Shown in pieces: positions 1-46,107 of a stretch of DNA of 64,000 nt. The notes under the pieces are model-generated. The model saw only the letters and a program-made list of their open reading frames with translations. It was not told the DNA's origin and did not search any database. Made by a program: the position numbers and the translations under genes. Source of the stretch: Sphingosinicella sp. CPCC 101087 (lineage in GTDB: Bacteria > Pseudomonadota > Alphaproteobacteria > Sphingomonadales > Sphingomonadaceae); NCBI RefSeq assembly GCF_004151485.1, contig NZ_SBFF01000002.1, positions 310,001 through 374,000 of the forward strand, given 5' to 3'. Every line of letters begins with the position of its first letter. Position 1 is the first letter of the stretch.

Positions 1-1229
1 AGCGGATCGTCCGTCTCCGTCCAACGTGGCGCCGGCTGCTGCGGGAAGACCCGGCCGATGATCGCATTGGTGAGGTCGGTCCTGCCCGCGCCGCTGGCCC
101 GGCCTCCGGTGGTCGACACGAAGAAGCCGAAGCCCCGCTCAGGCGCGATCACCAGGTTGGAATGGAAGTCGCCGGTATTGCCGCCATGGCCGACCAGCCG
201 CGGATTGGCCTCCCGGATGACGTAGAAGCCGTGTGCCATCCCGGGAAGGTCGGGCGCGTTGGCGATGGAATCGCCGAACAGCAAGGCGACCGAATCCGGC
301 CGGAGGATGCGCGCCGGTCCGAGCTGCCCGCCGCCGAGCATCGCCATGATGAAACGGGCCATGTCGGGCGCCGTCGCGGCCGACGAGCCGGCAGGCATGA
401 TCGAGCCGATAAGCTCGAAGGGCTGGGCCATGAACCGCCCGTCGACCAGCTCGTAGCCGGTGGCCATATGTTCGTGCAGCGCGCCGGTGAGCGGCTCGCG
501 GAATGTCGTCAACGCCATGCCGAGCGGCGCGAAGATGTGATTCTCGACATAGTCGGCGAACGGCTCGCCCGAGACGCGCTCGACGATGTAGCCGGCCAGC
601 GCAGAGCCGTAGTTGGAATAGGCAATCTCGGTTCCGGCCTCCCATAGGCGGGCGGGTATGTGCGCCTTGATCCACTCGCCATATTCGGCGACCTTCTCCG
701 GGTCGCGGGTGATGATGCCGCCGACGTCGCTCATGCCCGGCGTGTGCTGCAGGAGGTCGCGCACGCGGATTGGCCGGTCGCCGTGCGGTGGAATCTCGAA
801 ATCGAGATAGGTGTTCACATCGGCATCGAGGTCGACGCGGCCGAGCTCGACCTGCTGCATCAGCGCTGTCCAGGTGAACAGCTTGGAAACCGAGCCAGGT
901 CGAAAGAGCGTGCGCATCGGGTCGACCGGGCGCCGCTCGTCGACATCGGCGAAACCATAGCCTCGCGTGAACAGGATCCGCCCGTCATGCACAACGGTGA
1001 CGACGGCTCCGGCGACCTCGCGAGCCGCGATCTGCTCGGCCATGACACCGTCGACGAAATCGGCCAGGCCTTGCAATCGCGCGGAATCGAAAGTCCCCGC
1101 CTCCGCGGGAGCCTGGGCAGAGATCGGATCGACAGCGGCCGGGGTCCAGGACAGGGCCGCGGCAGCGGCCGCGAGAAGCAGGATGCGGGAGCCGCGCCGC
1201 GCCGTCCGATTGCGCCCGAAATGGATCAT
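1..1229 (-). CDS. Serine hydrolase, class C beta-lactamase/DD-peptidase fold (3' end outside window)
   Basis: 409 residues are visible and the frame is still open at base 1, so the C-terminus is missing. Residues about 15-28 form a hydrophobic export signal. The three active-site elements of the family are present: S-V-S-K (Ser113, Lys116), a Y-S-N motif and H-G-G near the visible end. In this family Ser attacks an amide or ester; a D-aminopeptidase or peptidoglycan-peptide substrate is inferred from the neighbours, not from the motifs. The ATG at 1229 is chosen because GGAGAG lies just upstream; another in-frame ATG at 1259 would add ten residues. It is the last visible gene of a long minus-strand array. 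It resembles the 664-residue hydrolase at 14625-16619 more than the pair at 3027-6321, sharing the F-R-P-G-S context. Confidence 0.85.
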   Translation of the reverse strand, partial: MIHFGRNRTARRGSRILLLAAAAAALSWTPAAVDPISAQAPAEAGTFDSARLQGLADFVDGVMAEQIAAREVAGAVVTVVHDGRILFTRGYGFADVDERRPVDPMRTLFRPGSVSKLFTWTALMQQVELGRVDLDADVNTYLDFEIPPHGDRPIRVRDLLQHTPGMSDVGGIITRDPEKVAEYGEWIKAHIPARLWEAGTEIAYSNYGSALAGYIVERVSGEPFADYVENHIFAPLGMALTTFREPLTGALHEHMATGYELVDGRFMAQPFELIGSIMPAGSSAATAPDMARFIMAMLGGGQLGPARILRPDSVALLFGDSIANAPDLPGMAHGFYVIREANPRLVGHGGNTGDFHSNLVIAPERGFGFFVSTTGGRASGAGRTDLTNAIIGRVFPQQPAPRWTETDDP

Positions 1230-1276
1230 CCCGTGTCTCTCCGTTTTCCAATGGATCATAGGCATCCCGGAACCGT

Positions 1277-2998
1277 TCAGCCTTGCCGGCCGCACGCGCC
1301 CCTGTCCGGCCAACCCTTCCAGCCGGGCCCACGCACGACGCGGCCGGGTGTCGCGCCCGTGTGGCGCCCGCCGGCGACTACCTGGATGCCGTTGACGAAA
1401 ACGTCGCTCACCCCGGTCGAATATCGGTGCGGCTCGGCATAGGTGGCGTGGTCGGTGATTTCCTCGGGATCGAAGATCACGATGTCCGCAAAATTGCCGG
1501 CGGCGAGGCGGCCGCGATCGCGCAGCCCCAGATTGGAGGCGGGCAACGCGGTCAGCCCGTGAATCGCCTGCGCCAGCGGCAGGGCCCGCTGCTCACGGAC
1601 ATATCTTCCGAGCAGCCGCGCGAAATTGCCGTAGGTGCGCGGATGCGCGCTGCTTTCGAGAGCCTCGCCTTCGGCGGCAGGGGCGGCGGCGTCGGATCCG
1701 AAGCTCATCCAGGGCAATGCTGTCTGACGCCGGACATTGTCCTCGGACATCATGAAATAGATGGCCCCGATCCGGCTGTCCTCCAGCACGAGGTCGATGG
1801 CGGTATCCTCCACGCTCGTCCCGCGCGTTGCCGCCACTTCCGCCAGGGTTTTTCCGAGGATTGGCCTCAGTGCCGGATTCTCCACCTCGACCAGCAGGAC
1901 ACCTTCGCCGCCGCCGGAGGCGCGCAGGAGATTTTCCCAATCGCTTTCCGGCGCGCGCATCGCCTCCAGCACTCGCGCCCGGATCTCGGGGTCGCGCAAC
2001 CGCGCCAGGAACGCATCGCGGCCGCCATCCTGCACCCACGGCGGCATGACCGCATCGAGGCCGGTTCCGCCGGCGGTGTAGAGATACATGTTGGTCGTGA
2101 TCCTCTGCCCGGCGGCGCGCGCTGCTTCAATTTGCGCGATGACCTCCGGCAGCCGATCCCAATTGCGCGTTCCGGCGAGCTTTAGATGATAGATTTCGGC
2201 CGGCAGGTTCCCCTCGCGAGCGATGGTGATGACCTCGTCGATGGCGTCGTCGATGTCGTCGGCTTCCGACCGCATATGGCTGATGTACATGCCGCCGCAC
2301 CGGCCCGCCTCGCTCGCCAGCGCAATGAGTTCCGGCGTTTCGGCATAATTGGCCGGCGCGTAGATGAGCGCCGATCCGACCCCGAGCGCACCTTCTTCCA
2401 TGGCCTGGCGGACCAGCGCGCGCATTCGACCGAGCTGTTCGGGCGTCGGATCGACATCCGCCTCCCCGAGCACGTGAATGCGGATCGTCGTAGCGCCCAC
2501 GAAGCTTGCGACATTGGGCGAGACGCCCCGATTCTCGAGGTGGTCGAGATACTCGCCGAGCGTCGTCCAGACCACCGGGAAGGCGCCTTCATTCTCCTCC
2601 CGCATCTGGTGCCGCATCGCCTCGCTGACGGGCCCCATCGTCCAGCCTTCGCCGAACACTTCCAGCGTCACCCCCTGATAGATGTCGGACATCGCGCGTC
2701 CGTCCTCGAGGAGCGACCGAGTTGCCCAGCTCAGCATGTTGATGAAACCGGGTGCAACGGCCTTTCCGGCGGCGGAGATCTCGTGCCGCCCCGTCCCGTC
2801 GACCTCACCGACCGCGACGATGCGGTCGTTCTCGACGGCGACGTCCCCGACATAAGGCGCGCCGCCCGAACCGTCATAGACGGTGCCGCCGCGGATCACG
2901 AGATCATAGGCCGGCGCGGGCACAGGTGTGGCCGCGATCGCCCCGGGAGCGCTCAGCACCGCCCACATCAGTGCAAGCCGGAAGCTCCGCCTCGTCAT
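1277..2998 (-). CDS. N-acyl-D-amino-acid deacylase family amidohydrolase with altered metal site
   Basis: 573 residues, signal peptide at about 1-22, then the amidohydrolase barrel. The D-aminoacylase family removes N-acyl groups from D-amino acids with a zinc centre. Visible family features are two metal-type histidines, His241 in S-H-M-R and His271 in Y-H-L-K, and a G-S-D motif carrying the expected catalytic Asp. The usual H-x-H after the first strand is absent: residues 84-91 read G-F-I-N-M-L-S-W. The Cys-containing segment of classical enzymes reads G-E-G. The ATG at 2998 gives a proper signal peptide; the frame upstream to 3202 lies in the next gene. It sits 28 bases after the upstream serine hydrolase and 47 bases before the next one, so probably co-transcribed. 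Periplasmic location and a D-peptide-related substrate are inferred. Confidence 0.8.
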   Translation of the reverse strand: MTRRSFRLALMWAVLSAPGAIAATPVPAPAYDLVIRGGTVYDGSGGAPYVGDVAVENDRIVAVGEVDGTGRHEISAAGKAVAPGFINMLSWATRSLLEDGRAMSDIYQGVTLEVFGEGWTMGPVSEAMRHQMREENEGAFPVVWTTLGEYLDHLENRGVSPNVASFVGATTIRIHVLGEADVDPTPEQLGRMRALVRQAMEEGALGVGSALIYAPANYAETPELIALASEAGRCGGMYISHMRSEADDIDDAIDEVITIAREGNLPAEIYHLKLAGTRNWDRLPEVIAQIEAARAAGQRITTNMYLYTAGGTGLDAVMPPWVQDGGRDAFLARLRDPEIRARVLEAMRAPESDWENLLRASGGGEGVLLVEVENPALRPILGKTLAEVAATRGTSVEDTAIDLVLEDSRIGAIYFMMSEDNVRRQTALPWMSFGSDAAAPAAEGEALESSAHPRTYGNFARLLGRYVREQRALPLAQAIHGLTALPASNLGLRDRGRLAAGNFADIVIFDPEEITDHATYAEPHRYSTGVSDVFVNGIQVVAGGRHTGATPGRVVRGPGWKGWPDRGACGRQG

Positions 2999-3026
2999 CT
3001 TTCCGCTCCAGGAACTTGGTGCCGCC

Positions 3027-4649
3027 TCATTCGGCTTCATCGGCCGGTGTGAAGAGCAGGTCATGATAATCGTAGCTGAAGTCTGCCGCCGGCGAGACGG
3101 CGCGCAGGGTGATGCGGTCGACATCTCCGTTCGGCCCAAGCGCAAAGGTGACGAAGGCGGGTTCAACCGCGGGATCGCTGAAGCGCGTGCGGAACGTGTC
3201 ATATTGGTGATGCTCCAGAGTTGCCGTCAGCCCCGGCCAGTGCGGCCAATCGACGTGGAGCGTCCCTCCCTCCTCCCGGATCGCGATCGTGCCGAACCAG
3301 GGATCCGTGTAGCGGCCGGCATAACGAGCAAGGGGGAGCGACGGGCCGACCTCGGCCGGCTGCGCCGCGGGCGCTTGCAGGGCAGCGGCCGCCGCGGCGA
3401 GGCGTTGATCGAGGAAGCTTCTGAAATGCGCCGGCCAGTCCGCGCGCGGGGCGCCGAGATAGTGATCGAGCAGCTCGTAGGTGAGTCCGCTCAGCAGCGC
3501 CGCATCCTCGGAGTTTAAGGCGATGTAGAAGCCGGTGTTGCGCTCCGGGATGAGCACGACCATCGCGATCGAACCGTACACTCCGCCCGAATGCATGACG
3601 ATGCGGTGGCCGTGATAGTCGCGCACGTTCCAGCCGAGCGCATAGGTGCTGAACATCGGCTGCGTCGCGGCGAGCGGTCCGGGCAGTGGCCGCACCGGCA
3701 TCAGCACGGCCGGGTTCCACATTTCGCGCGCCTGCGCCTCGCTGAACAGCCGAGCTTCGCCCGGGAGGTCGCCGCGAGCGAGCTGGAGGGCGAGCCATTT
3801 CGTCATGTCTTTGGCGCTGACGGTGAGCCCGCCCGCCGGCGCCGCATTGTCCGAGATGGCGGCGGATTCGTCCAGCTCGACGAGGTCGCCGAGGCCGCGG
3901 ACCGGGCCGTTGAGACGAGCATGGGGAAGCGCGAGGTTGCGGGTGGCACGGCGACCCGAACCGTCGACGGTCACGCGGTTCATTCCGGCCGGTCGCAGCA
4001 CCTGCTCCAGCATGAAACGCTCCCAGCTCTGGCCGCTCACCTCCTCGATCAGCTGCCCGGCGACGATGTAGAGGATATTGTCATAGGCATAAGCACTGCG
4101 GAAGCTGGTCGCAGGGCGGATGTGACGGAGCCGGCGCACCGTTTCCTCACGCGAGAGATTGCTGCGCGGTACGAACAGGAGGTCGCCCGCGCCGAGCCCG
4201 AGACCGCTGCGATGGACGAGCAGGTCGCGGATCGTCATCTCGCGCGTGACCCAGGGATCGTACATCCGGAAGTCCGGCATATGATCGATCACGCGATCGT
4301 CCCAGCGGATCCGCCCCTGATCGACAAGGATGGCCAATGCGGCGGAGGTGAAGGCCTTGCCCGTCGATCCGGTCGCGAAATTGGTGTCTGCGTCGACGGC
4401 GCGTCCGCCCTCCAGCTCCGTCCGGCCGAAGCCGCGGGCGAAGGTCGTCTCGCCGTTCTCGACGATGGCCACGGTCATTCCGGGGACTCCGAACGACTGG
4501 CGCAGGGTCTCGACGCGCTCGGCGAGATCCGCCGGCGGGTCGGCGAGGGCGGAGGAAGGCGCCAGGAGAAGAGCCAGCGCCACCAGCAGACGAACCCAGG
4601 GGGAGCCATCCCGCCGAAGCCGGCGCGGGCGTATCGGGTACGTGTTCAT
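3027..4649 (-). CDS. Serine hydrolase, beta-lactamase/D-aminopeptidase family
   Basis: 540 residues from the ATG at 4649, beginning with an arginine-rich stretch and a hydrophobic signal segment ending in A-L-A. The active-site elements are S-T-G-K, Y-D-N and H-S-G-G, so this is the DD-peptidase/esterase superfamily. A C-terminal lipocalin-like beta domain of about 110 residues follows, as in several D-aminopeptidase-type members. It is closely similar along its whole length to the neighbour at 4696-6321, so the two arose by tandem duplication. An alternative ATG at 4709 has a strong AGGGAGG upstream and overlaps the end of the upstream gene by 14 bases; it would make an unusually long 56-residue export signal, but translational coupling from there is possible. 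Confidence 0.83.
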   Translation of the reverse strand: MNTYPIRPRRLRRDGSPWVRLLVALALLLAPSSALADPPADLAERVETLRQSFGVPGMTVAIVENGETTFARGFGRTELEGGRAVDADTNFATGSTGKAFTSAALAILVDQGRIRWDDRVIDHMPDFRMYDPWVTREMTIRDLLVHRSGLGLGAGDLLFVPRSNLSREETVRRLRHIRPATSFRSAYAYDNILYIVAGQLIEEVSGQSWERFMLEQVLRPAGMNRVTVDGSGRRATRNLALPHARLNGPVRGLGDLVELDESAAISDNAAPAGGLTVSAKDMTKWLALQLARGDLPGEARLFSEAQAREMWNPAVLMPVRPLPGPLAATQPMFSTYALGWNVRDYHGHRIVMHSGGVYGSIAMVVLIPERNTGFYIALNSEDAALLSGLTYELLDHYLGAPRADWPAHFRSFLDQRLAAAAAALQAPAAQPAEVGPSLPLARYAGRYTDPWFGTIAIREEGGTLHVDWPHWPGLTATLEHHQYDTFRTRFSDPAVEPAFVTFALGPNGDVDRITLRAVSPAADFSYDYHDLLFTPADEAE

Positions 4650-4695
4650 CACATGCGGTCTTCGCTGGGAAGTCCGTCCGGCTTCGATCCCGATC

Positions 4696-6321
4696 CTAAG
4701 GCGCGGCATGATCCCCTCCCTGGGCGACGGGCGTGAACAGAAGGTCGTGATAGTCGAAGCTGAAATCGGCGAGCGGCGAGACGGCGCGCATGGTGATGCG
4801 CTCGACCTTGCCGTCGGCGTCGAGCTGGAAGGTCACGTAGGCCGGCTCCATGTTCGGATCGTCGAAGCGGGTCCGGAACGTGTCATATTGCCAGTGCTCG
4901 AGCTCGGCCGAGAGCCCGAATGCGTGCGGGAAGGAAACCGTAAGTCGGCCGCCGGCCTCCCTGATGCCGATCGTGCCGTACCAGGGATCCGCAAAGTCGC
5001 CGGCGTAGCGGGCGAGTGGAAGCGAAGGGCCGACTTCGGCGGGCGCTGCTGCCGGCGCCTGCAACGCCGCTATCGCCTGCTCGGTTCGGGCCCGCTTGAA
5101 GTCGCGCAGCTGCTCGGGCCAGCCTGCATGCGGAAGGCCGAGATAATGGTCGAGCAGCTCGTACATCAGCCCGCGCACCATCTCGCCTTCTTCGCTGTTC
5201 ACCGCGATGAACAGGCCGACATTGCGGTCGGGCAGCAAGGCGACGGCGGCGAGCGAGCCGAACACCGCCCCGCCGTGCCAGACCAGGCGCGCGCCGCGAT
5301 AGTCCTGCACGTCCCAGCCCAGCGCGTAAGTCGAGAAGTTCGGCTGGGTCGCAGCAAGGTTGGCCGGCCATTCCGCCACCGGCTGGAGCACGACGGGGGT
5401 CCACATCTCGCGAGACGCCGCCTCGCTGAACAGGCGCTCCCCCTCGGGAAGGGCACCTCGCGCGAGCTGTACGGCGAGCCAGCGGGTCATCTCGTCGGCG
5501 CTGATCGCCAGGCCGCCGGCCGGCGCCGCATTGGGCGCGACGTTCAGTCTTTCGTCGAGCGGGACCTGGTCTCCGGTGCCGCGGATCGCACCGTTCAGCC
5601 GGGCGTGCGGACGGGCCCGATTGGGTTCGGCAAGCAGTTGTGCATCGCTCGCGGTCGACCGGCGCATGCCGATCCGGCGCATCACGTCCTCGCGGACGAA
5701 CTCTTCCCACGTGCGTCCGGTGACCGCCTCGATCAGCTGCCCGGCAACGATGTAGAGCACATTGTCGTAGGCATAGCCGCTGCGGAAGCTCGTCGCCGGC
5801 CGGATGTGGCGCAATCGGCGCACCGTCTCCTCGCGCGAAAGGTCGCTGCGCGGCACGAACAGGAGGTCGCCGGCGCCGAGCCCGAGACCGCTTCGGTGGA
5901 CGAGCAGGTCACGGACCGTCATCTCGCGCGTGACCCACGGATCCCACATCCGGAAATCCGGCATATGGTCGATCACCCGGTCGTCCCAGCCGATCCTTCC
6001 CTGATCGACCAGCAAGGCGAGCGCAGCGACGGTGAAGGCCTTTCCGGTGGATCCGGTGGCAAACAGCGTGTCGGCATTCACGGCTTGCGGCGCGGAAAGG
6101 TCCGTGACTCCGAAGCCGCGGGCGAACGTGGTGCGTCCATCCTCGACTATCGCGAACGTCGCCCCCGGCACGCCGAGCGCTTCCCGCAATGCCTCGACTC
6201 GCTGGGCCAAGCCCGCGGGCGGCTCGGACGCGGCGGCGACAGGTGCGAAAAGGAAAACGAGGGCGAGAAGGAGCCTTGCGCCCGCGGGGGCACCTCGGCG
6301 ACGACGAACACTAGGCCGCAT
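4696..6321 (-). CDS. Serine hydrolase, beta-lactamase/D-aminopeptidase family (tandem paralogue)
   Basis: 541 residues with an N-terminal Arg-rich stretch and hydrophobic signal, about residues 14-31. The S-T-G-K, Y-D-N and W-H-G-G elements match the downstream paralogue, as do long blocks around the Y-D-N site and the C-terminal beta domain. The ATG at 6321 overlaps the stop of the permease gene by 11 bases and is preceded by GGGGAGAAG, which supports translation coupled to the permease. It is probably a periplasmic amidase or peptidase. Class C beta-lactamase activity cannot be excluded from motifs, but the array of four such genes next to D-glutamate enzymes argues for peptide or amide substrates. 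Confidence 0.85.
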   Translation of the reverse strand: MRPSVRRRRGAPAGARLLLALVFLFAPVAAASEPPAGLAQRVEALREALGVPGATFAIVEDGRTTFARGFGVTDLSAPQAVNADTLFATGSTGKAFTVAALALLVDQGRIGWDDRVIDHMPDFRMWDPWVTREMTVRDLLVHRSGLGLGAGDLLFVPRSDLSREETVRRLRHIRPATSFRSGYAYDNVLYIVAGQLIEAVTGRTWEEFVREDVMRRIGMRRSTASDAQLLAEPNRARPHARLNGAIRGTGDQVPLDERLNVAPNAAPAGGLAISADEMTRWLAVQLARGALPEGERLFSEAASREMWTPVVLQPVAEWPANLAATQPNFSTYALGWDVQDYRGARLVWHGGAVFGSLAAVALLPDRNVGLFIAVNSEEGEMVRGLMYELLDHYLGLPHAGWPEQLRDFKRARTEQAIAALQAPAAAPAEVGPSLPLARYAGDFADPWYGTIGIREAGGRLTVSFPHAFGLSAELEHWQYDTFRTRFDDPNMEPAYVTFQLDADGKVERITMRAVSPLADFSFDYHDLLFTPVAQGGDHAAP

Positions 6322-7453
6322 GAGCTTCTCCCCTCTCCGGTTCGCCGCCCTTGCGCGCCATCAGACGCGCGACGCCGATCGTGGCGAGCGGAAGCACGAA
6401 CAAAGCGAGCATGATCCAGCCGAAGGCGCCGTAGCCACGGGCGATCAGGTCGATGAGGCCGAAGCGGGCCGCGACCACGCCCGAGCCGATCACCAGGGCG
6501 GCGCTCAAGGCGAGCCGCTGCGCCCGGCCGAACCGTTGCCTGCGACGCTCCAGGCTCGCCGCCACCCGCTCGTTGATCGCATTGACCATTCCGACGCCGG
6601 TCTCGAGCAAGGCGCATAGGATCATCGCCTGGAACAGGAGGTGGAACCAGGGCGCTTCCAGCCGGCGCAGCAGGAAATCGGAGGGCAGGGCCTCACCGCC
6701 GACCTCGGGATAGAAGGCGACCATGCACAGGAAGAAGAGCAGGGCCGGCAGCATCGCGACGGGACCGCACAGGAGGCCCGCTGCGACGGCGTCGCGTCGG
6801 CTGGTCAGATGGCGAAGGAAAGGGAGGATGGCGACCGCCGCCACCAGATTGTAGCCCGCATAGGTTGCTCCGCCGGCGATCCAGGCGGCCGCCGGCCCGG
6901 CCTCGGCTGCCGCGAACTGCGGTGCGATCCGCCCGCCGAAGCTCGCCAGGGCGAGGACCAGGAAGCCGCCGTAGACGAGATAGATGAAGGCGGACGAGAA
7001 GCGGAACATCCGCTCCGCCGCCGCGGTGCCGAAGCCGGTTACCCCGACGATCGCCGCCATCAGGGCGGCGGTTCCGGCCCAGTGCGGAAGGCCGAAGGCG
7101 GCGCCGATGCTTCCCGCCGCCGCCGCCATCACCGCCAGGATCAGGACCATGAGCAGGACGTAGACGATCTCGAACAGGAACCAGAAGGGGCCGAGCAAGG
7201 CCCTGAAGAAGGCGCGATAATCGGTGGCGGCGAAGGCGCGAGCGAACAGGAAGGTGAGGGCGCAGACGGCGCTCCACAGCGCCATGGCGAGGAGTATGCC
7301 GTAGAGGCCGCCGATCGGGCCCACGGTGAGGAAGAATTCGGCAATTTCCCGGCCGGTGGCGTAGCCGCCGCCGATCACCACCGCCTTGAAGGCCAGAGCA
7401 GGCAGCAGGAAGCGCTGGAACCAGGTAGACCGTGCTGACGTCCCGCTCGCCAT
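6311..7453 (-). CDS. YkvI-like inner-membrane permease
   Basis: 380 residues with about ten hydrophobic segments and few charged loops. The N-terminal G-G-G-Y-A-T-G-R-E-I stretch and the layout recall the YkvI family of LeuT/APC-fold proteins, whose substrates are mostly unknown. The ATG at 7453 overlaps the stop of the DUF1611 gene in a TAATG arrangement, so the two are translationally coupled; the much longer open frame upstream is only antisense-free GC-rich sequence inside that gene. Being coupled to a D-glutamate N-acetyltransferase-like gene suggests uptake of D-glutamate or a related acidic amino acid. That substrate is an inference from context alone. Confidence 0.75.
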   Translation of the reverse strand: MASGTSARSTWFQRFLLPALAFKAVVIGGGYATGREIAEFFLTVGPIGGLYGILLAMALWSAVCALTFLFARAFAATDYRAFFRALLGPFWFLFEIVYVLLMVLILAVMAAAAGSIGAAFGLPHWAGTAALMAAIVGVTGFGTAAAERMFRFSSAFIYLVYGGFLVLALASFGGRIAPQFAAAEAGPAAAWIAGGATYAGYNLVAAVAILPFLRHLTSRRDAVAAGLLCGPVAMLPALLFFLCMVAFYPEVGGEALPSDFLLRRLEAPWFHLLFQAMILCALLETGVGMVNAINERVAASLERRRQRFGRAQRLALSAALVIGSGVVAARFGLIDLIARGYGAFGWIMLALFVLPLATIGVARLMARKGGEPERGEAHAA

Positions 7454-8517
7454 TAGCCGAGGCAGCTGTCGAGCAGGCGTTCGAAACGTGACCCGCCGCG
7501 AATGGGGTCGGCTACCGGAAGGCCCAGCCGCTCGGCCTCGCGGGCGAGCATCGCTTCGGCCTCGTCCGGCTCGAGCGCCGCCGTGTTGAACGTCACGCCG
7601 CCGCAGCGGATCGCCGGGTTCGTCCTCGAGCCGAGCCGGAGATTGAGCTCGATCACCTCCGCGACGTGCGGAAGCGGGAAATCGGGATGGCCGAGCATGG
7701 TGGGGCGCGACGCGTCGTGACAGACGACGATCACGTCCGGCTGGCTGCCGTGCAGCAGCGCCAGCGAGACTCCGGCATAGGCCGGATGGAAGAGCGAGCC
7801 CTGGCCCTCGATAACGTCCCAATGTCCCGGATCGGCGGCCGGGCTCAGCATCTCCGCTGCGCCGGCAGCGAAATCGGCTACCACCGCGTCCATCGGAATG
7901 CCGCCGCCGGCAATCATGATGCCGGTCTGCCCCGTCGCCCGGAAATCCGAACGCACGCCGCGCCCGACAAAGCCGCGCGCGATCGCCAGCGCGCTATATT
8001 TCTTGCCCAGCGCGCAGTCGGTGCCGACGGTGAGCAGCCTCTTGCCGCTTCTTTTTTCCCCGGTCGCCACCGGGATCTCGGCAGGTGGCGTGCGCACGTC
8101 GATCAGCCTGCGGCCGAGCCTTTCCGCCTTCTCGCCCAGCCGGGCGTCGTCGTTCAAGCGGTTGTGCATGCCGCTGACCAGGTCGAGCCCGGCGTCTAGC
8201 GCATCGAGCAGTGCCGGCATCCACTGAGGCGCGATCACTCCGCCCGAATTGGCGATTCCGATCACCATCGATCTGGCGCCCGCCGCCGCCGCCTCGGCCG
8301 GGGAAAGCCGGGGCAGGCCGGTCGTCACCGTGGCGGCCGGCAAGGCAAGTTCGCCGATGCACTTCTCCGGCGCCCAGTCGCGCAGGCCGAAGGCTGTCTT
8401 CGCATAGCCTGCGTCCACGGCGTCGCCGAGGAACAGGAGATAGGGTGAGGGCAGATCGAGCCCTGGCGCCCTGCTGCTCAGCTGCTTCCGCCGGTGGTCG
8501 AGACGATCGTACAGCAC
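7453..8517 (-). CDS. dgcN: DUF1611 family protein, probable D-glutamate N-acetyltransferase
   Basis: 354 residues. The sequence follows the DUF1611/DgcN pattern: P-Y-L-L-F-L-G-D near the start, then G-E-K-R-x-G-K-R-L-L-T-V-G-T-D-C-x-x-G-K (a P-loop-like segment), F-R-A-T-G-Q-T-G, and I-E-G-Q-G-S-L-F-H-P. DgcN acetylates D-glutamate using acetyl-CoA as the first step of the DgcN-DgcA route to L-glutamate. A matching DgcA candidate lies at 13574-14584 in the same array, which strengthens the call. The start is set at a GTG (8517) with AAAGG six bases upstream; the open frame continues into the receptor gene but without family similarity. It is 35 bases downstream of the TonB receptor. Confidence 0.82.
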   Translation of the reverse strand: MLYDRLDHRRKQLSSRAPGLDLPSPYLLFLGDAVDAGYAKTAFGLRDWAPEKCIGELALPAATVTTGLPRLSPAEAAAAGARSMVIGIANSGGVIAPQWMPALLDALDAGLDLVSGMHNRLNDDARLGEKAERLGRRLIDVRTPPAEIPVATGEKRSGKRLLTVGTDCALGKKYSALAIARGFVGRGVRSDFRATGQTGIMIAGGGIPMDAVVADFAAGAAEMLSPAADPGHWDVIEGQGSLFHPAYAGVSLALLHGSQPDVIVVCHDASRPTMLGHPDFPLPHVAEVIELNLRLGSRTNPAIRCGGVTFNTAALEPDEAEAMLAREAERLGLPVADPIRGGSRFERLLDSCLG

Positions 8518-8552
8518 ATAGAGCCTTTCGAAGGGGCGGAGCAGCCGGAGGA

Positions 8553-10895: not shown

Positions 10896-10991
10896 ACCCC
10901 TTCTCCCGTTCGTCCCGGGAGCCCGACCTATGTCTGGTCGGTGCTCACTGGACCATGCCTCCCCCCGACCGCCTGCCGGCGGCCGGAATGG

Positions 10992-12143: not shown

Positions 12144-12187
12144 CCCGGCCAATCGTTCCTCCCTCGGCGTTTCTATATCTCGTTGGG

Positions 12188-12217
12188 ACAATAGGATCCT
12201 GAGCAGAGAATTGTCAA
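12188..12217 (-). promoter_or_regulatory. Putative promoter of the dipeptidase-receptor-dgcN segment
   Basis: Reading on the minus strand, TTGACA (12217-12212) is followed after 18 bases by TATTGT (12193-12188) and then CCC. The same layout, TTGACA, 18 bases, TTATGT, CCC, occurs in front of the first gene of the array (16740-16709). It lies in the 87-base gap between the transporter stop and the dipeptidase start, so it could provide internal transcription of the downstream genes. No transcript data are available. Confidence 0.5.
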
Positions 12218-12230
12218 ACGCTTCCGGCGG

Positions 12231-13577
12231 TCACCTGCCGCTGCGCATCATCGGCTCGGGCGACACCGCATCGCGCGTTTCGCGAGACGCCAGCACCCGT
12301 CGCGCCGGGCGGTCGAGCGCGAGGAGCAGCGCCGCTGCGGCGCTCGCAATGACGCTGAGCAGGACGAAGAAGGATGCCTGGCTCATGACGCTCCAAAGGG
12401 TGCCGACCAGTCCCGCCGTAAGGCTGCCTGCGAAGATGGCGAGGAACCAGGCCGCGACGGTCGTCGCGCCGAACCGCGGCGGCGCGAGCCGCGCGAACAG
12501 CCCTAGTCCGTTGGGGAGGATGTAGAGCTCGCCCAGGGTGAAGATGAGGAAGAAGCCTGCCAGCCAAAGCCAGCTCGCCCGCCCATCCCCCGCAAGGGCG
12601 GAGGCGACGGCCAGCAGGGCATAAGCGGACGCGACGATGATCGCGCCGATCGCCATCTTCTGCATCGTGGAATGCTCGCGCCCGGCCGCCGCCCGATGCT
12701 TCCAGCGGGCGAGCAGGGCAGGCGTTAACAGGATGACCAGCAGCGGATTGAGCGACTGGAACCAGGTCATCGGAATGGTGAAGGCGCCGGCGGCGCGATC
12801 GACGCCTTCGGCCGCCCACAGCGCCACCGTGTTGCCGACCTGCTCGTAGGCGCCCCGGAACACGGTAACCGCGAGGCCGACCGCGAGCAGCAGTGCATAG
12901 ACCTGTCTGCCCGTCGGAACCGGCGCCGGCTGCGCCGGCCTGGCTGCCGCCCGCGGCGCCTCGGGCGGCAGATACTTGCCTCCCGCGACATAGATGAGCA
13001 GGCCGACGAGCATGCCTATACCGGCCGCCCCGAAGCCCCAGTGCCAACCATATAGCTCGCCCAGCGTGCCGCAGATCAGGGGCGCCAGGAATCCCCCCAG
13101 GTTCACGCCGACATAATAGACATTGTAGGCCCAGGGCCGGCGCGGATCGCCCGCGGAATAGAGATCGTTGATCTGGCTCGGCAGGGTGGGGAGGAAAAGC
13201 CCGTTGCCGAGCGCGATCGTCGCCAGCGCGAAGTAGAAAGCCGGCTCGAACGCCATCATGAAATGGCCCGCCGCCATGATTGTCGCGCCGGAGATCACGG
13301 CCCGCCTCTTGCCGAGCCAGCGATCGGCGATCGTGCCGCCGACGATCGGCGTGAAATAGGCGAAGGCGGTGTAGAAGCCGTAGATGAGGGAACTGGCCTC
13401 CTGCTCGAGCAGGAGGGATCGGGTCATGTAATAGACCAGGAGCGCCCGCATGCCGTAGTAGGAGAAGGTCTCCCACATGTTGGTGAGGAACAGGATGGTG
13501 AGGCCGCGCGGCTGGCCGAACCAGGTCAGTTCTCCGGGATGTTGCGGGCGGTGACTCGCCGCCCCGGCGTCGCTCAC
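12231..13577 (-). CDS. POT/PTR family proton-dependent oligopeptide transporter
   Basis: 448 residues, about twelve to fourteen membrane spans. Visible family marks are N-M-W-E-T-F-S-Y-Y-G-M-R in the first helix (the E-x-x-E-R-F/F-Y-Y-G region), the PTR2 signature from F-Y-T-A-F-A-Y-F-T-P through D-R-W-L-G-K-R, and the late F-T-L-G-E-L-Y-I-L-P-N-G-L block. POT proteins import di- and tripeptides with protons at the inner membrane. The GTG at 13577 overlaps the stop of the DgcA-like gene as GTGA and has AAGGG eight bases upstream; a TTG at 13604 is the only other in-frame option nearby. Placement between a racemase-like enzyme and a dipeptidase fits import of short peptides. Confidence 0.88.
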   Translation of the reverse strand: MSDAGAASHRPQHPGELTWFGQPRGLTILFLTNMWETFSYYGMRALLVYYMTRSLLLEQEASSLIYGFYTAFAYFTPIVGGTIADRWLGKRRAVISGATIMAAGHFMMAFEPAFYFALATIALGNGLFLPTLPSQINDLYSAGDPRRPWAYNVYYVGVNLGGFLAPLICGTLGELYGWHWGFGAAGIGMLVGLLIYVAGGKYLPPEAPRAAARPAQPAPVPTGRQVYALLLAVGLAVTVFRGAYEQVGNTVALWAAEGVDRAAGAFTIPMTWFQSLNPLLVILLTPALLARWKHRAAAGREHSTMQKMAIGAIIVASAYALLAVASALAGDGRASWLWLAGFFLIFTLGELYILPNGLGLFARLAPPRFGATTVAAWFLAIFAGSLTAGLVGTLWSVMSQASFFVLLSVIASAAAALLLALDRPARRVLASRETRDAVSPEPMMRSGR

Positions 13578-14584
13578 GCCGCGACCCTTGCGCCGCCGCC
13601 CCAAACTTCGTCGCTGCAGAAGATCTCACCGTCCCGATAGGTGACGCTCGGGCTTCGGTCGGCGGCGAGGAAGATGGGCCCGTCCAGGTCGACATAGTCG
13701 CACAATTGGCCGAGCAGGAAGCCCGGGGCCATGGCGAGGCTGGTGCCGACCATGTTGCCGACCATCACGCCGAGGCCGAGCCGGCGCGCTTTCTCGGCCA
13801 TCATCAGGCCCTCCGTAAGGCCGCCGCACTTGTCGAGCTTGATGTTCACGATGTCGAACCGGCCGGGGAGGCCGCGTATGTCGGCCAGCGTGAGCGCGCT
13901 CTCGTCGGCCGCGATGGGGATTGCCGACCGATAACCTTCGAGATCGGCCTCGCTGCCCCGGGCGAGCGGCTGCTCGAGCAGGGACACGCGCTGGTCCATC
14001 AACCCGGAGACCAGGCGGTCGAGGTCCCGGCGGGCAAAGCCCTGATTGGCGTCGACGCCGATCCATACGTCGGGACGCGCATCGCGCACCGCCTTCACGC
14101 GCGCCAGATCGAGGTCGAGCTCGCCGGTAAGCTTGATCTTGATCGCCCTGGCACCTTCATGACCTCGCGCTCCGGCCGCCATGGCTTCGGGCGCGTCGGC
14201 TCCCAGCGTGAAGGTCGTGACCAGCGGCTTCATCGAGGGAAGGCCCGCCAGCTCCCAGGCGGCGCGGCCGGCCTGCGCCGCCTCCAGCTCCCACATGGCG
14301 CAGTCGACCGCGTTTCGGGCGCCACCGGCCGGCATCAGCGCGCGCAGGTCCGCGCGATCCGCCCCGCCTTCGATCGCCTCGCGGTATCGCTCTATTTCGC
14401 CGAGCATGTGGTCGAGGTCGTCTCCGAGATAATAAACGCCCGACGCCTCGCCGCGACCGTGGTGCGGACCCTCGGTCAGGGTGACGACGATCGCGTCGGT
14501 CGCCTCGAACACATAGCCCGAGATCCGAAACGGCGCGGCGAGCCGAAGCTTCTCCGCCCGGACCTCGAGGGTCCGCTGCGCCAT
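13574..14584 (-). CDS. dgcA: Enolase-superfamily epimerase, probable N-acetyl-D-glutamate racemase or dipeptide epimerase
   Basis: 336 residues of the muconate-lactonizing-like subgroup. Catalytic elements are I-K-I-K (Lys149, Lys151), metal ligands in V-D-A-N (Asp178), L-E-Q-P (Glu204) and A-D-E-S (Asp227), and the opposite base region N-I-K-L-D-K-C-G-G (Lys249/Lys252). Such enzymes epimerise L-Ala-D/L-Glu dipeptides or, in the DgcA form, N-acetyl-D-glutamate. A DUF1611/DgcN gene in the same array favours the DgcA role; a dipeptide epimerase working on murein peptides is the main alternative, and the two could both fit the locus. The start at 14584 has GGAGGG upstream. The stop overlaps the POT transporter start by four bases. 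Confidence 0.8.
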   Translation of the reverse strand: MAQRTLEVRAEKLRLAAPFRISGYVFEATDAIVVTLTEGPHHGRGEASGVYYLGDDLDHMLGEIERYREAIEGGADRADLRALMPAGGARNAVDCAMWELEAAQAGRAAWELAGLPSMKPLVTTFTLGADAPEAMAAGARGHEGARAIKIKLTGELDLDLARVKAVRDARPDVWIGVDANQGFARRDLDRLVSGLMDQRVSLLEQPLARGSEADLEGYRSAIPIAADESALTLADIRGLPGRFDIVNIKLDKCGGLTEGLMMAEKARRLGLGVMVGNMVGTSLAMAPGFLLGQLCDYVDLDGPIFLAADRSPSVTYRDGEIFCSDEVWGGGARVAA

Positions 14585-14624
14585 CAGCGTCCCTCCCGGT
14601 GGCGCCCAATTGTCCGCCCCGGCA

Positions 14625-16619
14625 TCAGTAGTTGGTCCCGAAGTCGAGCATGTTGAAAGCGAAGCCGACCCAGATCACGATCACCGCCGCGAACAGCAAA
14701 GCGACGCTCCAGGCTTTCGCCTTCCAGCCCGGCTTGCTCCGCCACACCGACCACAGGTTCCACAGGATCGCGGCCAGCCCCCCGAAGAAGGCGATCCAGG
14801 TGAAGAGCTGCAGGACGATGATCACCCCGTCGAAGGCGGCGCTGAGATTGACGAGATCCCCCATCATCATGGAGATGGCCGCGACCCAGCCGATCACCGC
14901 GAGGAGCATTGCCAGGGCGCCGATGCGGCTCGCCCGATAGGCCTGCAATTCCCTTTTCTCGAGCGCCAGCTTCGCGCCGAACCGGCGGCGCACCACCGCC
15001 CGGATCGGCCAGAGCAGGGCGGTCAGGAACAGGATGGCGAGGCTGGCGATCAGCGCGGGCATCAGCCAGGCCGTGTCGCGATGCCACGGCGTACGGTCGA
15101 GCACGATGAAAGGCGCGAAGCCGTCCAGGCTCCACCGCACGATCCGGCCGTCTTCGACCACCGCGGCGAGCCGCTCGTGGCTGTTCAGATCGTGCCAGAC
15201 GAAAGGCTGGACCTCCACCCAGTCGCGCGGTTGCCCGTCAAGGCCGGTGGCGAGCGGGACGATGAGCTCGCCATCGGCTCCGAGGCTGACCTTCACCTGA
15301 CTGAGCAGCTCGACGATGTTCAGGAAGTTGGACTTCGAACCGCGGGACATCACCCAGGTTCCGGTCATCATCCGCGCATGTTCGGCGGCCGTCTCGGGGT
15401 CGACCCGGCGGGTGTCGGCCGGGGCCGGGAAGTAGCGGTCGGCGAACTGCTCGAAAAGGGCGTTCCTCAGGTTGCTGACGGCGCCCTCGCGGCCGCTGCT
15501 GTTGAACGATACGAACAGGCCGACATTGTCGTCCATGAAAAGGTGCAGGTAGGAATGGAAGGCGATCGTGTCGCCGCCATGGCCTATCACCCGACGGCCG
15601 TTGATGCTGGTCTCGTAAAAGCCGAGCATCATGCGGTTGAGCGGCCCCACGCCGGGCGCGGCGGTGGTGTGCATCAGCCGGGCCGTCTCCGGCCTCAGCA
15701 GCCCTGCGCCATTGTTGAGGTGGGCGACCATGAATCGCGCCATGTCCTCCCCGGTCGCAGACAGGGAGCCGGCCGGTCGCGGGCCGACATGCTCGAACGG
15801 GACGGGCTCGCCCGACGCCTGGCTGTAGCCGGTCGCGGCCATCGGCTGCAGCCGGTCCGGCAAAGGCTGGCGGAAGGAAGAGTTGGCCATGCCGAGCGGC
15901 TGGAAGATGTGGCGCTCGACATAGGCGTCGAACGGCTCGCCCGACACGCGCTCGACGATATAGCCGGCGAGGCTGGTGGCGTAGTTGGAATAAGCCGGCG
16001 TCTCGCCGGCCGGGAAGACCCGCTCGGGAGTCCACCGCTTCAGCAGCTCGACATAGTCGGTCACCCCGTCGGGACTGGTCGAGATGATGTCCTTGACCTG
16101 CTCCTCGAAGCCAGGCGTGTGCGTCATCAGGTGGCGGACCGTGATCGGCTGTCCGTCGCGCGGCGGGATCTCGAAGTCGATATAGCGGTTGACGTCGGCA
16201 TCGAGGTCCACTCGGCCCTGCTCGACCAGCTGCATCACCGCGGTCCAGGTGAACAGCTTGGAGATCGATCCCGGTCGGAAGAGTGTGCGCGCCGGATCGA
16301 CTGGTGTGCGACGCTCGACGTTGGCGAAACCGAAGCCGCGCTGAGTGAGTATTTGGCCGTCACGGACGACGACGACGACGCCCCCGGCGATGTCGCCGGT
16401 TCCGAGCGCGTAAGGCAGGAATCCGTCCAGCCAGGCGTTGACGTCCTCGGCTGTGAGCTGGCGCGCGCCTCCCGGCGCGGCGGGGGCGGGCGGCCGCGGC
16501 GCGCCTTCCTCGACCCTTTCTTCCGTTACCGGTGGTTCGAGCGGCGAGGTACGCTGCGCCGCGGTGCCTATTCCGATGAGGGCGATCGCCCCGGCGACCA
16601 GGAACTTGAATGCGCGCAT
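14625..16619 (-). CDS. Serine hydrolase of the beta-lactamase family with C-terminal membrane domain
   Basis: 664 residues: signal or anchor at about 5-22, a proline-rich linker, then the serine hydrolase domain with S-I-S-K, Y-S-N and I-G-H-G-G, and a C-terminal part with four predicted membrane helices from about residue 520. The catalytic domain would face the periplasm. It is the first gene of the minus-strand array, divergent from the XRE-cupin regulator, and the promoter-like element at 16709-16740 points into it. The hydrolase domain is most like the partial gene at 1-1229. Likely substrates are peptides or amides containing D-residues, by context only. Confidence 0.85.
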   Translation of the reverse strand: MRAFKFLVAGAIALIGIGTAAQRTSPLEPPVTEERVEEGAPRPPAPAAPGGARQLTAEDVNAWLDGFLPYALGTGDIAGGVVVVVRDGQILTQRGFGFANVERRTPVDPARTLFRPGSISKLFTWTAVMQLVEQGRVDLDADVNRYIDFEIPPRDGQPITVRHLMTHTPGFEEQVKDIISTSPDGVTDYVELLKRWTPERVFPAGETPAYSNYATSLAGYIVERVSGEPFDAYVERHIFQPLGMANSSFRQPLPDRLQPMAATGYSQASGEPVPFEHVGPRPAGSLSATGEDMARFMVAHLNNGAGLLRPETARLMHTTAAPGVGPLNRMMLGFYETSINGRRVIGHGGDTIAFHSYLHLFMDDNVGLFVSFNSSGREGAVSNLRNALFEQFADRYFPAPADTRRVDPETAAEHARMMTGTWVMSRGSKSNFLNIVELLSQVKVSLGADGELIVPLATGLDGQPRDWVEVQPFVWHDLNSHERLAAVVEDGRIVRWSLDGFAPFIVLDRTPWHRDTAWLMPALIASLAILFLTALLWPIRAVVRRRFGAKLALEKRELQAYRASRIGALAMLLAVIGWVAAISMMMGDLVNLSAAFDGVIIVLQLFTWIAFFGGLAAILWNLWSVWRSKPGWKAKAWSVALLFAAVIVIWVGFAFNMLDFGTNY

Positions 16620-16708
16620 TTCACCCCTCCCTGCATTGGCACGGCCGTTTGCCTCGTGCCCGCTGTGCGGCTAAGCTTACCGAACCTAAGCAGACTTTAA
16701 CCTGTACG

Positions 16709-16740
16709 GGACATAATGTCCTAGTTGGAAAATTTGTCAA
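16709..16740 (-). promoter_or_regulatory. Divergent control region: promoter overlapped by 13-bp palindrome
   Basis: On the minus strand TTGACA (16740-16735) and TTATGT (16716-16711) are separated by 18 bases and point into the serine hydrolase gene. The -10 lies inside the perfect palindrome GGACAT-A-ATGTCC (16709-16721). The plus strand of the same palindrome contains CATAAT, a possible -10 for the regulator gene starting at 16767. One bound repressor could therefore control both directions. The regulator itself is the obvious candidate to bind here, but this is inferred. Confidence 0.55.
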
Positions 16741-16766
16741 ACACGCGATTGAAAGGACGATCGGGA

Positions 16767-17513
16767 ATGGCGGCGGACCAGCCGACCTTGGGCAAGCTGC
16801 TGCGGGGCCTCAGGACCCGAAACAGCTGGACACTCAAGCAGATGAGCGATCGCAGCGGCATTCCGGTGTCGACCCTATCCAAGGTCGAGCATGACCGGCT
16901 GACGCTGACCTACGACAAGCTCCAGCAGCTGAGCCAGCGACTCGGCATCCGCATGTCCGAGTTGTTCGCCGAGCCGGCGGAAGGGGCGGAGGCGGTGGTC
17001 ACTGCGCGGCGCAGCATCGGCCGGACCGATCGAGCGATCCAAGTGACCACGCCCAACTACGACTATCACTATCTCTGCCCGGAGTTGAGGCGGAAGCGCA
17101 TGATCCCGGTGCTGACAAGGATTCGGGCAAAGACCGCCGAGGAGTTCGGCGAGCTCGTCAGGCATTCGGGTGAGGAATATATCTACGTCCTGGAAGGCCG
17201 GATCGAGGTGCATACCGAATTTTACGACCCGGTCGTCCTGGAGGAGGGCGAATCGATCTACATCGATTCGCAGATGGGCCACGCTTACGTCGTCGCGGAA
17301 GATTGCGACGAGGCGGTCGTGCTCGGAGTCTGCTCCAGCGCCGACGAAGGATTGATGAACTCGTTGATGAGCCTCCACGGAACCGACAGGGCCGAGGGCG
17401 AGGGCAGGGTCCATCTGCCGGATCGCCGTCCCCAGCGTCGCAACGCGACGGCGTCTCCCCAGCGCACGAAGCGCGACGGAAAGTCTCCGACTCGAAAGCT
17501 GGTGGAGGGATAA
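16767..17513 (+). CDS. XRE-family transcriptional regulator with C-terminal cupin domain
   Basis: 248 residues. Residues about 6-65 form a helix-turn-helix of the Cro/XRE type (L-G-K-L-L-R-G-L-R, T-L-K-Q-M-S, S-T-L-S-K-V-E). A cupin barrel follows with E-E-Y-I-Y-V-L-E-G and a G-H-A-Y segment. A basic tail of about 40 residues is unusual. XRE-cupin proteins sense small ligands in the cupin pocket and control adjacent catabolic genes; PuuR-type members respond to amine compounds. The ATG at 16767 has AAAGGA nine bases upstream; the in-frame TTG codons further upstream fall inside the control region. Probably the local regulator of the D-peptide array. Confidence 0.85.
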   Translation: MAADQPTLGKLLRGLRTRNSWTLKQMSDRSGIPVSTLSKVEHDRLTLTYDKLQQLSQRLGIRMSELFAEPAEGAEAVVTARRSIGRTDRAIQVTTPNYDYHYLCPELRRKRMIPVLTRIRAKTAEEFGELVRHSGEEYIYVLEGRIEVHTEFYDPVVLEEGESIYIDSQMGHAYVVAEDCDEAVVLGVCSSADEGLMNSLMSLHGTDRAEGEGRVHLPDRRPQRRNATASPQRTKRDGKSPTRKLVEG

Positions 17514-46083: not shown

Positions 46084-46107
46084 CGAACACGAGAAAGAGG
46101 AGAAGGC

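What the first reader, a model, noticed from the sequence alone, without database searches (positions are those of the whole stretch)
1..17513. Candidate D-glutamate/D-peptide scavenging locus combining DgcN-DgcA with four serine hydrolases, dipeptidase, receptor and transporters
Seen: a continuous minus-strand array with many overlaps, holding a DUF1611 gene and an enolase-superfamily gene together with hydrolases, POT and YkvI permeases, a TonB receptor and a divergent XRE-cupin regulator. Known: DgcN acetylates D-Glu and DgcA epimerises N-acetyl-D-Glu. Inference: the cell degrades murein- or protein-derived peptides containing D-Glu outside and inside the cell and feeds L-Glu into metabolism. 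An extended locus of this content goes beyond the two-enzyme pathway. The deacetylase needed for N-acetyl-L-Glu is not obvious; the aminoacylase relative is exported, so cannot readily supply it.
Basis: partly seen in the sequence, partly recalled or inferred. Interest (0 to 1): 0.8.

Follow-up and report, generated by a model that had tools for sequence, protein, structure and literature searches.

The report
Regulated locus for scavenging D-amino-acid peptides
A set of genes kept together in many bacteria, and apparently switched on together, looks built to take up and dismantle peptides that contain mirror-image (D) amino acids; details point away from the simple D-glutamate pathway first proposed, and its transporter belongs to the family closest, among genomes searched, to one found in bacteria that eat the cyanobacterial toxin microcystin.

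Summary
Window 3-17513 is a minus-strand array of four S12 serine hydrolases, an aminoacylase-like amidohydrolase, an M19 homologue, a TonB receptor, POT and YkvI-type permeases, DgcN and DgcA homologues, and a divergent XRE-cupin regulator. It is not a chance neighbourhood: S12, YkvI and XRE-cupin genes each lie near 0 of 20 same-order DgcN genes above the NCBIfam cut-off, against 12, 14 and 9 of 14 locus-type ones. A conserved promoter/operator pattern matches three places in the 4.7-Mb genome, all in this cluster, one beside a second dgcN left of the window; the unit extends about 8 kb left. The D-glutamate reading is only partly supported: both enzymes score below curated cut-offs; a substrate-loop Arg common in canonical DgcA is Gly in 52 of 53 locus-type copies, as in a hydrophobic dipeptide epimerase; the amidohydrolase and M19 homologue have lost metal-ligand motifs. 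The ten best matches of microcystin transporter MlrD in 118 genomes are POTs of this locus type. Substrate: probably D-residue peptides, identity open.

The parts
3..1259 (-). S12a, S12 serine hydrolase with N-terminal hydrophobic segment (SxxK, YxN, HxG present); runs off the window's left end
   Evidence: PF00144 209 bits; motifs; continues to about G000:C12:309718
1277..2998 (-). AmH, D-aminoacylase-like amidohydrolase with N-terminal hydrophobic segment; HxH lost, NCG replaced by GEG
   Evidence: Amidohydro_3, PRK09061 213 bits of 340, D-aminoacylase 1m7j 244 bits, motifs
3027..4649 (-). S12b, S12 hydrolase with DUF3471
   Evidence: motifs
4696..6321 (-). S12c, S12 hydrolase with DUF3471
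   Evidence: motifs; PDB matches include ClbP, alkaline D-peptidase, D-aminopeptidase
6311..7453 (-). YkvI-type permease, APC-superfamily fold by model
   Evidence: no Pfam/NCBIfam match; model and fold matches, TMq 0.71-0.72 to YcsG, BasC, SLC7A10; next to DgcN on the same strand for 32 of 61 DgcN
7453..8517 (-). DgcN homologue (DUF1611), locus type; GTG start is a guess
   Evidence: NF041892 450.8 bits, cut-off 480; PDB 7xrj 351 bits
8553..10895 (-). TonB-dependent receptor
   Evidence: PF00593, PF07715
10992..12143 (-). M19 homologue with Tat-like start; HxD lost, bridging Glu replaced by Gln
   Evidence: PF01244 259.5 bits; start; motifs
12181..12217 (-). promoter/operator element upstream of M19
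12231..13577 (-). POT (PTR2) peptide transporter, relative of MlrD
   Evidence: PF00854 160 bits
13574..14584 (-). DgcA homologue (enolase superfamily), loop Arg replaced by Gly23
   Evidence: NF042940 363.2 bits, cut-off 400
14625..16619 (-). S12d, S12 hydrolase with hydrophobic C-terminal segments
   Evidence: PF00144 221.5 bits; hydropathy; motifs
16704..16740 (-). promoter/operator element upstream of S12d in the divergent intergenic region
16767..17513 (+). XRE-cupin regulator, divergent
   Evidence: HTH and Cupin_2 matches

Best explanation
A self-regulated locus for scavenging peptides with D-amino-acid residues. Shown: a conserved gene unit, a shared operator-like element, intact catalytic motifs of the S12 hydrolases and of the DgcA epimerase. 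Inferred: the TonB receptor(s) bring D-residue peptides into the periplasm; the S12 enzymes (relatives of D-peptidases) and perhaps the M19- and aminoacylase-like proteins trim them; POT imports short peptides and the YkvI-type permease imports freed D-amino acids; inside, DgcN N-acetylates the D-amino acid and DgcA epimerises the N-acetyl-D to the N-acetyl-L form; the XRE-cupin protein represses the promoters until a pathway compound appears. DgcN and DgcA belong to a separate, hydrolase-linked branch that probably acts on D-residues other than free D-glutamate.
For: Gene content. Same-order control, 20 DgcN loci above cut-off against 14 locus-type loci: S12 0/20 v 12/14, YkvI 0/20 v 14/14, XRE-cupin 0/20 v 9/14, POT 0/20 v 7/14, M19 0/20 v 8/14, LysR 12/20 v 0/14. 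Named genomes, 57 v 22 loci: S12 51 v 3, XRE-cupin 40 v 0, YkvI 40 v 2, TonB 47 v 2. All 10 POT genes of 69% or more identity found in 98 genomes lie within about 11 kb of a locus-type DgcN. Operator: three matches in the own genome, all in the cluster; in 118 genomes, 13 of 36 matches lie in 8 genomes that hold the locus, each at the locus. YkvI model is APC-like. S12 relatives include D-peptidases.
Against: No substrate, activity or growth datum. AmH (11/20 v 9/14) and TonB (7/20 v 12/14) discriminate poorly or only partly. The 57/22 split was made after seeing the architecture. DgcA is missing near DgcN in 16 of 57 loci (loci are at most about 21 kb, some cut). A plasmid copy (L053) has POT, S12d, DgcA and XRE-cupin but no DgcN detected within 29 kb. 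M19 and AmH may be catalytically dead. No deacetylase for the product. Six locus-bearing genomes of the 118 (G010, G017, G021, G030, G035, G037) have no operator match at the locus.
Confidence: 0.6

Rival explanations
1. One reading: the locus feeds on murein or protein peptides and turns D-glutamate into L-glutamate by the DgcN-DgcA reactions.
For: DgcN and DgcA are the best-matching NCBIfam families of these proteins; catalytic Lys/Asp/Glu residues and the DxD motif of DgcA are kept; S12 and M19 families act on D-containing peptides (recalled).
Against: Both below cut-off; a LysR-DgcN-DgcA-type locus with AmH and a DctA-like gene is present elsewhere in the genome (L032); loop Arg lost in 52 of 53 locus-type DgcA; DgcN Arg49 is Arg in 20 of 20 above-cut-off copies but Ala in 69 of 72 locus-type copies.
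Confidence: 0.28
2. DgcA here is a dipeptide epimerase for L-X-D-Y dipeptides brought in by POT, and DgcN modifies a different compound.
For: Second-best NCBIfam match is L-Ala-D/L-Glu epimerase (221.7 bits); DxD motif kept; POT and DgcA overlap in the window.
Against: POT is found in only 17 of 57 named loci, DgcA in 41; the family score favours DgcA (363.2 v 221.7 bits).
Confidence: 0.15
3. The locus disposes of beta-lactams or other D-residue antibiotics (hydrolysis plus use of the fragments).
For: A class A beta-lactamase-type gene is in 5 loci: L056, L075, L078, L104, L108, next to DgcN in L056 and L104; the L056 copy passes its cut-off (224.6 of 200 bits). S12 and S15 families include enzymes acting on beta-lactams (recalled).
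Against: Only 5 of the 73 loci clustered; the three S12 proteins scanned score far below beta-lactamase cut-offs; TonB, POT and epimerase fit nutrition better.
Confidence: 0.06
4. Chance clustering of abundant sphingomonad families (TonB, S12).
Against: Same-order control and shared operator.
Confidence: 0.01

Closest known systems
DgcN-DgcA(-DgcR) D-glutamate catabolic system (Yu et al. 2023, recalled, paper not held; mentioned in PMC12363236 and PMC10845958, passages seen)
   Same: DUF1611 protein of the DgcN family plus enolase-superfamily racemase of the DgcA family; catalytic residues of the racemase kept.
   Different: Below curated cut-offs, not adjacent to each other in the window, XRE-cupin instead of LysR regulator, joined to exported hydrolases and peptide uptake, loop Arg of DgcA and Arg49 of DgcN replaced.
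mlr microcystin-degradation cluster (mlrA-F)
   Same: S12 hydrolase (mlrB), POT (mlrD), M19 dipeptidase (mlrE) and D-aminoacylase (mlrF) families recur; MlrD is 47.5% identical to the window POT and falls inside the locus POT clade.
   Different: No MlrA or MlrC counterpart among the window genes tested; MlrB 27%, MlrE 26% and MlrF 33% to window genes; MlrE's best matches are M19 genes mostly elsewhere in the genomes.
L-Ala-D/L-Glu epimerase (YcjG/YkfB) murein-peptide recycling
   Same: Same superfamily, same catalytic residues.
   Different: E. coli enzyme has the loop Arg; the locus type has Gly; neighbours of YcjG not compared here.
Thermotoga maritima hydrophobic dipeptide epimerase (2zad/3deq)
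   Same: Gly at the same loop position, counted from the shared Pro-Phe.
   Different: Only remote overall similarity (63.9 bits); its gene neighbourhood was not examined.
D-aminoacylase / N-acyl-D-glutamate deacylase
   Same: Fold family of AmH (244 and 207 bits); equivalents of His220, His250 and Asp366 kept.
   Different: HxH and the Cys ligand position changed.

Membership tests
DgcN-DgcA D-glutamate pathway | DgcN equivalog score (NF041892, 480 bits) | tested here: not met
   450.8 bits; second copy 434.1 bits; the separate third copy (L032) 500.9 bits
DgcN-DgcA D-glutamate pathway | DgcA equivalog score (NF042940, 400 bits) | tested here: not met
   363.2 bits
DgcN-DgcA D-glutamate pathway | adjacent LysR regulator (dgcR-like) | tested here: not met
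   LysR (L032 type) near 0 of 14 locus-type loci, 12 of 20 above-cut-off loci
DgcN-DgcA D-glutamate pathway | racemase catalytic residues | tested here: met
   K149, K151, D178, E204, D227, K249 invariant in 53 of 53
DgcN-DgcA D-glutamate pathway | loop Arg of the canonical racemase | tested here: not met
   Gly in 52 of 53 locus-type; canonical Arg 15 of 19 and 24 of 24
DgcN-DgcA D-glutamate pathway | N-acetylation of D-Glu and epimerisation of N-acetyl-D-Glu | not testable with these tools
   needs enzyme assay
mlr microcystin cluster | MlrA microcystinase gene in the locus | tested here: not met
   MlrA matched no window gene (to 26.2 kb); one 32% local match (121 aa) to a CAAX-protease gene at L031:10428-11336
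mlr microcystin cluster | MlrC gene | tested here: not met
   no match at E 1e-5 in the called genes of the window to 26.2 kb and of L031, L032, L034-L047
mlr microcystin cluster | MlrD-type POT | tested here: met
   47.5% identity; MlrD's ten best matches among 118 genomes are the locus POTs
L-Ala-D/L-Glu epimerase murein recycling | loop Arg as in E. coli YcjG | tested here: not met
D-aminoacylase (Cys/His/His zinc site with HxH) | HxH and Cys ligand | tested here: not met
   role of these residues in PMC12017989 (passages)
M19 membrane dipeptidase | HxD and bridging Glu metal ligands | tested here: not met
   His replaced by Leu in 26 of 26 and Glu by Gln in 25 of 26 locus-type M19 rows, and both in the window

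The most novel reading that the evidence does not exclude
This is an undescribed peptide-utilisation regulon for D-residues other than glutamate (for example hydrophobic or amide D-residues of non-ribosomal peptides). Its DgcN and DgcA have changed specificity, two of its exported amidohydrolase-type proteins have become altered-metal enzymes or binding proteins, and its POT lineage is the source from which microcystin degraders drew MlrD.
Probability: 0.35. Interest if true: 0.78.

Novelty: new variant of a known kind. Interest (0 to 1): 0.6.

Why it matters
D-residues are thought to be a large, poorly degraded pool in soil and water (recalled). A regulated unit met in Sphingomonadales and, by record title, in Xanthomonas, Pseudoxanthomonas, Luteimonas, Rudaea, Dyella, Povalibacter and Duganella would show how such peptides are taken up and used. 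It also makes two open points testable: what the below-cut-off DgcN/DgcA branch does, and where the microcystin transporter MlrD came from (the origin of mlrB, mlrC and mlrD is called unknown in PMC6563193, passages seen).

Tried and rejected
Rejected: chance clustering. Rejected: MlrE as a relative of the window M19; its best matches are another M19 group, mostly elsewhere in the genomes, although that group also stands at the end of some loci such as L034 and L036. Led nowhere: simple dyad search in the divergent region (the words then gave the motif); tRNA and Rfam scans of the window, no hits; paper searches for DUF1611 (2 papers, both on Dickeya by title), for at least three of dipeptide epimerase, serine hydrolase, TonB-dependent receptor, Sphingomonas (0), for at least four of mlrD, microcystin, oligopeptide transporter, D-glutamate, peptidoglycan (0), and for at least five of D-glutamate, Sphingomonas, D-amino acid, serine hydrolase, peptidoglycan, dipeptidase (1, on Bacillus); DgcN/DgcA papers: 7 listed. 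That the locus is not described rests on these searches of an open-licence library only.

Weak points told: the 57/22 split was made, at a rank where identity ranges overlap (58-59%). The control sets are 20 of the 42 over-cut-off places listed and 20 of its below-cut-off places, picked by me mostly for contig length; L037 among the 14 locus loci proved to be a 54% copy on a short contig. Two enolase rows, L188 (29%) and L197 (31%), were left out of the DgcA loop count as other family members. MlrD has a very long branch (2.56) and lies inside the locus clade only because the long-branched L103 POT falls outside it. Signal peptides and membrane parts were judged by hydropathy and eye. That the loop Arg binds the Glu side chain is recalled, not read.
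Full report
What is there. The window is C12:310001-374000 of an unnamed 4.7-Mb genome. Its family is probably Sphingomonadaceae: a genome of the same family code, G030, shares a contig length (700168) with Pacificimonas pallii. Window 3-16619 holds, read from right to left: S12d, DgcA, POT, M19, TonB receptor, DgcN, YkvI-type permease, S12c, S12b, AmH, S12a, all on the minus strand, with an XRE-cupin regulator divergent at 16767-17513. Several genes touch or overlap. The last gene runs to about C12:309718. Left of it lie a second XRE-cupin gene (72% identical), an S15-family peptidase, a second DgcN (61% identical) and another TonB receptor. A third DgcN, the only one of the three above the curated cut-off, lies 94 kb to the left of the window's DgcN in a LysR-DgcN-DgcA-AmH-DctA arrangement (L032; the names LysR and DctA were given by eye).

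Is it more than chance? Fourteen DgcN loci of relatives were read first. In 57 locus-like against 22 other loci, S12 was found in 51 v 3, XRE-cupin 40 v 0, YkvI 40 v 2, TonB 47 v 2, M19 of either kind 32 v 1 (the window kind in 18 of 57), POT 17 v 0, AmH 28 v 2, DgcA 41 v 18. That split followed sight of the data, so a second control used the NCBIfam cut-off. In 20 same-order loci above it, S12, YkvI, XRE-cupin, POT and M19 were each 0 of 20, LysR 12, AmH 11, TonB 7. In 14 locus-type loci the numbers were S12 12, YkvI 14, XRE-cupin 9, POT 7, M19 8, LysR 0, AmH 9, TonB 12; so AmH does not discriminate and TonB only partly. Twenty other below-cut-off loci were mixed: S12 9, YkvI 6, M19 3, AmH 7, TonB 7, LysR 5, POT 0, XRE-cupin 0; some (for example L197, L198, L201) show a hydrolase-linked form without POT and XRE-cupin. 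Conversely, all 10 POT genes of 69% or more identity in 98 genomes sit within about 11 kb of a locus-type DgcN, and 12 of 13 full-length S12d genes of 53% or more do so too; the thirteenth, in G021, is on another contig (matches per genome were capped). Four plasmid records hold a POT of 65-79% identity. Three were read: two carry the core; the third, L053, has POT, S12d, DgcA and XRE-cupin but no DgcN was detected in its 29 kb, a case against strict linkage.

One regulon. In 47 XRE-cupin divergent regions, shared words (AATTGTCAA in 24, GGATCATTA in 22) led to a promoter-like element TTGACAATTTTCTAATCAGGATCATTATGTCCC with an imperfect inverted repeat over the expected -10 region. Forty of 47 regions score above every shuffled one, but the model was trained on them. 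A strict pattern built from it and from the own-genome sites matches three times in the whole genome, against none for the reversed pattern: upstream of S12d, upstream of M19, and upstream of the second DgcN. The three matches are by construction; the absence of a fourth is the test. In 118 genomes the pattern matches 36 times in 27 genomes, the reversed control 11 times. Thirteen matches fall in 8 genomes holding the locus (G000, G005, G009, G012, G014, G015, G022, G067), each at the locus; the other 23 are in genomes where no locus was seen, or, in G030, away from its DgcN. Against: G010, G017, G021, G035 and G037 hold the locus without a match, and G030 without one at it. No such site scored in the canonical locus L032.

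What the enzymes say. All four S12 proteins keep SxxK, YxN and HxG, and their solved relatives include ClbP, alkaline D-peptidase, D-amino acid amidase and D-aminopeptidase. DgcA keeps its catalytic Lys, Asp and Glu residues and the DxD motif. But at a loop position where canonical copies mostly carry Arg (15 of 19 in the first set; all 24: 18 above cut-off, five LysR-type below it, and L032), 52 of 53 locus-type copies carry Gly. So do five hydrolase-linked copies of the second set (L187, L194, L198, L199, L201) and L202, near which no such hydrolase was detected. The four exceptions of the first set, L115, L119, L129 and L132, also have Gly, three of them without S12 neighbours, so Gly is not strictly tied to the locus. 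E. coli L-Ala-D/L-Glu epimerase has Arg there; the T. maritima enzyme, which takes hydrophobic dipeptides (PMC5808125 and PMC13338154, passages), has Gly. That this Arg holds the Glu side chain is recalled. In DgcN, Arg49 is Arg in 20 of 20 above-cut-off copies and Ala in 69 of 72 locus-type copies; the other scan copies are mixed (Arg 15, Cys 7, Ala 2, Gln 1), and hydrolase-linked copies without POT keep Arg, except L188 with Cys. Of 42 AmH-type proteins aligned, 30 lack HxH and all 30 have GE at the NC site; 11 have HxH, among them L032 and distant amidohydrolases, some of them in locus-type loci, and one is cut. The 30 keep two His and the Asp as far as listed. In a characterised relative the HxH pair was needed for activity (PMC12017989, passages). 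In the 26 locus-type M19 proteins the HxD His is Leu in 26, the bridging Glu is Gln in 25, and two further His and an Asp are kept in 25 each. These changes are conserved, so the proteins are probably used, but perhaps not as their family names say.

Mechanism. TonB uptake, periplasmic trimming by S12 enzymes, import by POT and an APC-type permease, N-acetylation and epimerisation inside, control by XRE-cupin. The permease model matches YcsG, BasC and SLC7A10 (TMq 0.71-0.72) but also metal, sugar and choline transporters at lower scores, so the fold does not fix the substrate. Only the gene unit, the motifs and the operator-like element are shown; the flow is inferred. The fate of the N-acetyl-L-amino acid is open: in the own genome the ArgE-type matches are below cut-off and ArgJ is present. 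In 7 of 73 loci a leucine-dehydrogenase-like gene, and in 8 an Lrp-type gene, lie at or near the locus, which hints at neutral L-amino acids as products but is a minority.

Link to microcystin degradation. The mlrA primer pattern matched 2 of 396 genomes; one, G236, holds a complete mlrFEBDAC cluster (L051), the other showed none of these genes by eye. Its mlrA and mlrB lengths equal those published (1011 and 1626 bp), the others are near (PMC6563193, PMC4520899, passages). MlrD is 47.5% identical to the window POT; its ten best matches in 118 genomes are the locus POTs (41-47%), then a drop to 34-36%. In the tree it groups with the locus POTs (support 100/99) and within them all but L103 (99/85), on a long branch. 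MlrB, MlrE and MlrF are not specially close to the window genes.

Verdict. Observation confirmed and extended; the D-glutamate inference is only partly supported. It is a new variant of the DgcN-DgcA kind of system, with a clear set of tests.

Noticed in passing
L031:12290-19565 (G000:C12:302290-309565), just left of the window: Second DgcN with its own XRE-cupin regulator, S15 peptidase and TonB receptor; carries one of the three operator matches.
   Followed up: partly
L031:10428-11336: CAAX-protease (Rce1-like) gene near the second DgcN; 32% over 121 residues to MlrA.
   Followed up: no
L056:2864-3847; also L075, L078, L104, L108: Class A beta-lactamase-type gene in DgcN loci, directly after DgcN in L056 and L104.
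   Followed up: partly
L052:8298-9943; L064, L065, L072, L082, L085; dehydrogenase alone L086, Lrp alone L105, L107: Leucine-dehydrogenase-like gene and Lrp-type regulator beside the locus.
   Followed up: partly
L034:15014-16201 and other loci: A second M19 with intact HxD (47% to MlrE) at the end of the locus, beside the altered M19; M19b-type hits in 27 of 57 loci.
   Followed up: partly
L051:3356-11717: Complete mlr microcystin cluster in a relative of the window's organism.
   Followed up: yes
L055 and L057: Two DgcN-hydrolase units side by side in Sphingobium.
   Followed up: no
window 43142-49142: Plus-strand run of genes that by eye looks like aromatic-acid breakdown (dehydrogenase, Rieske-type oxygenase, amidohydrolase); not checked with any family search.
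   Followed up: no
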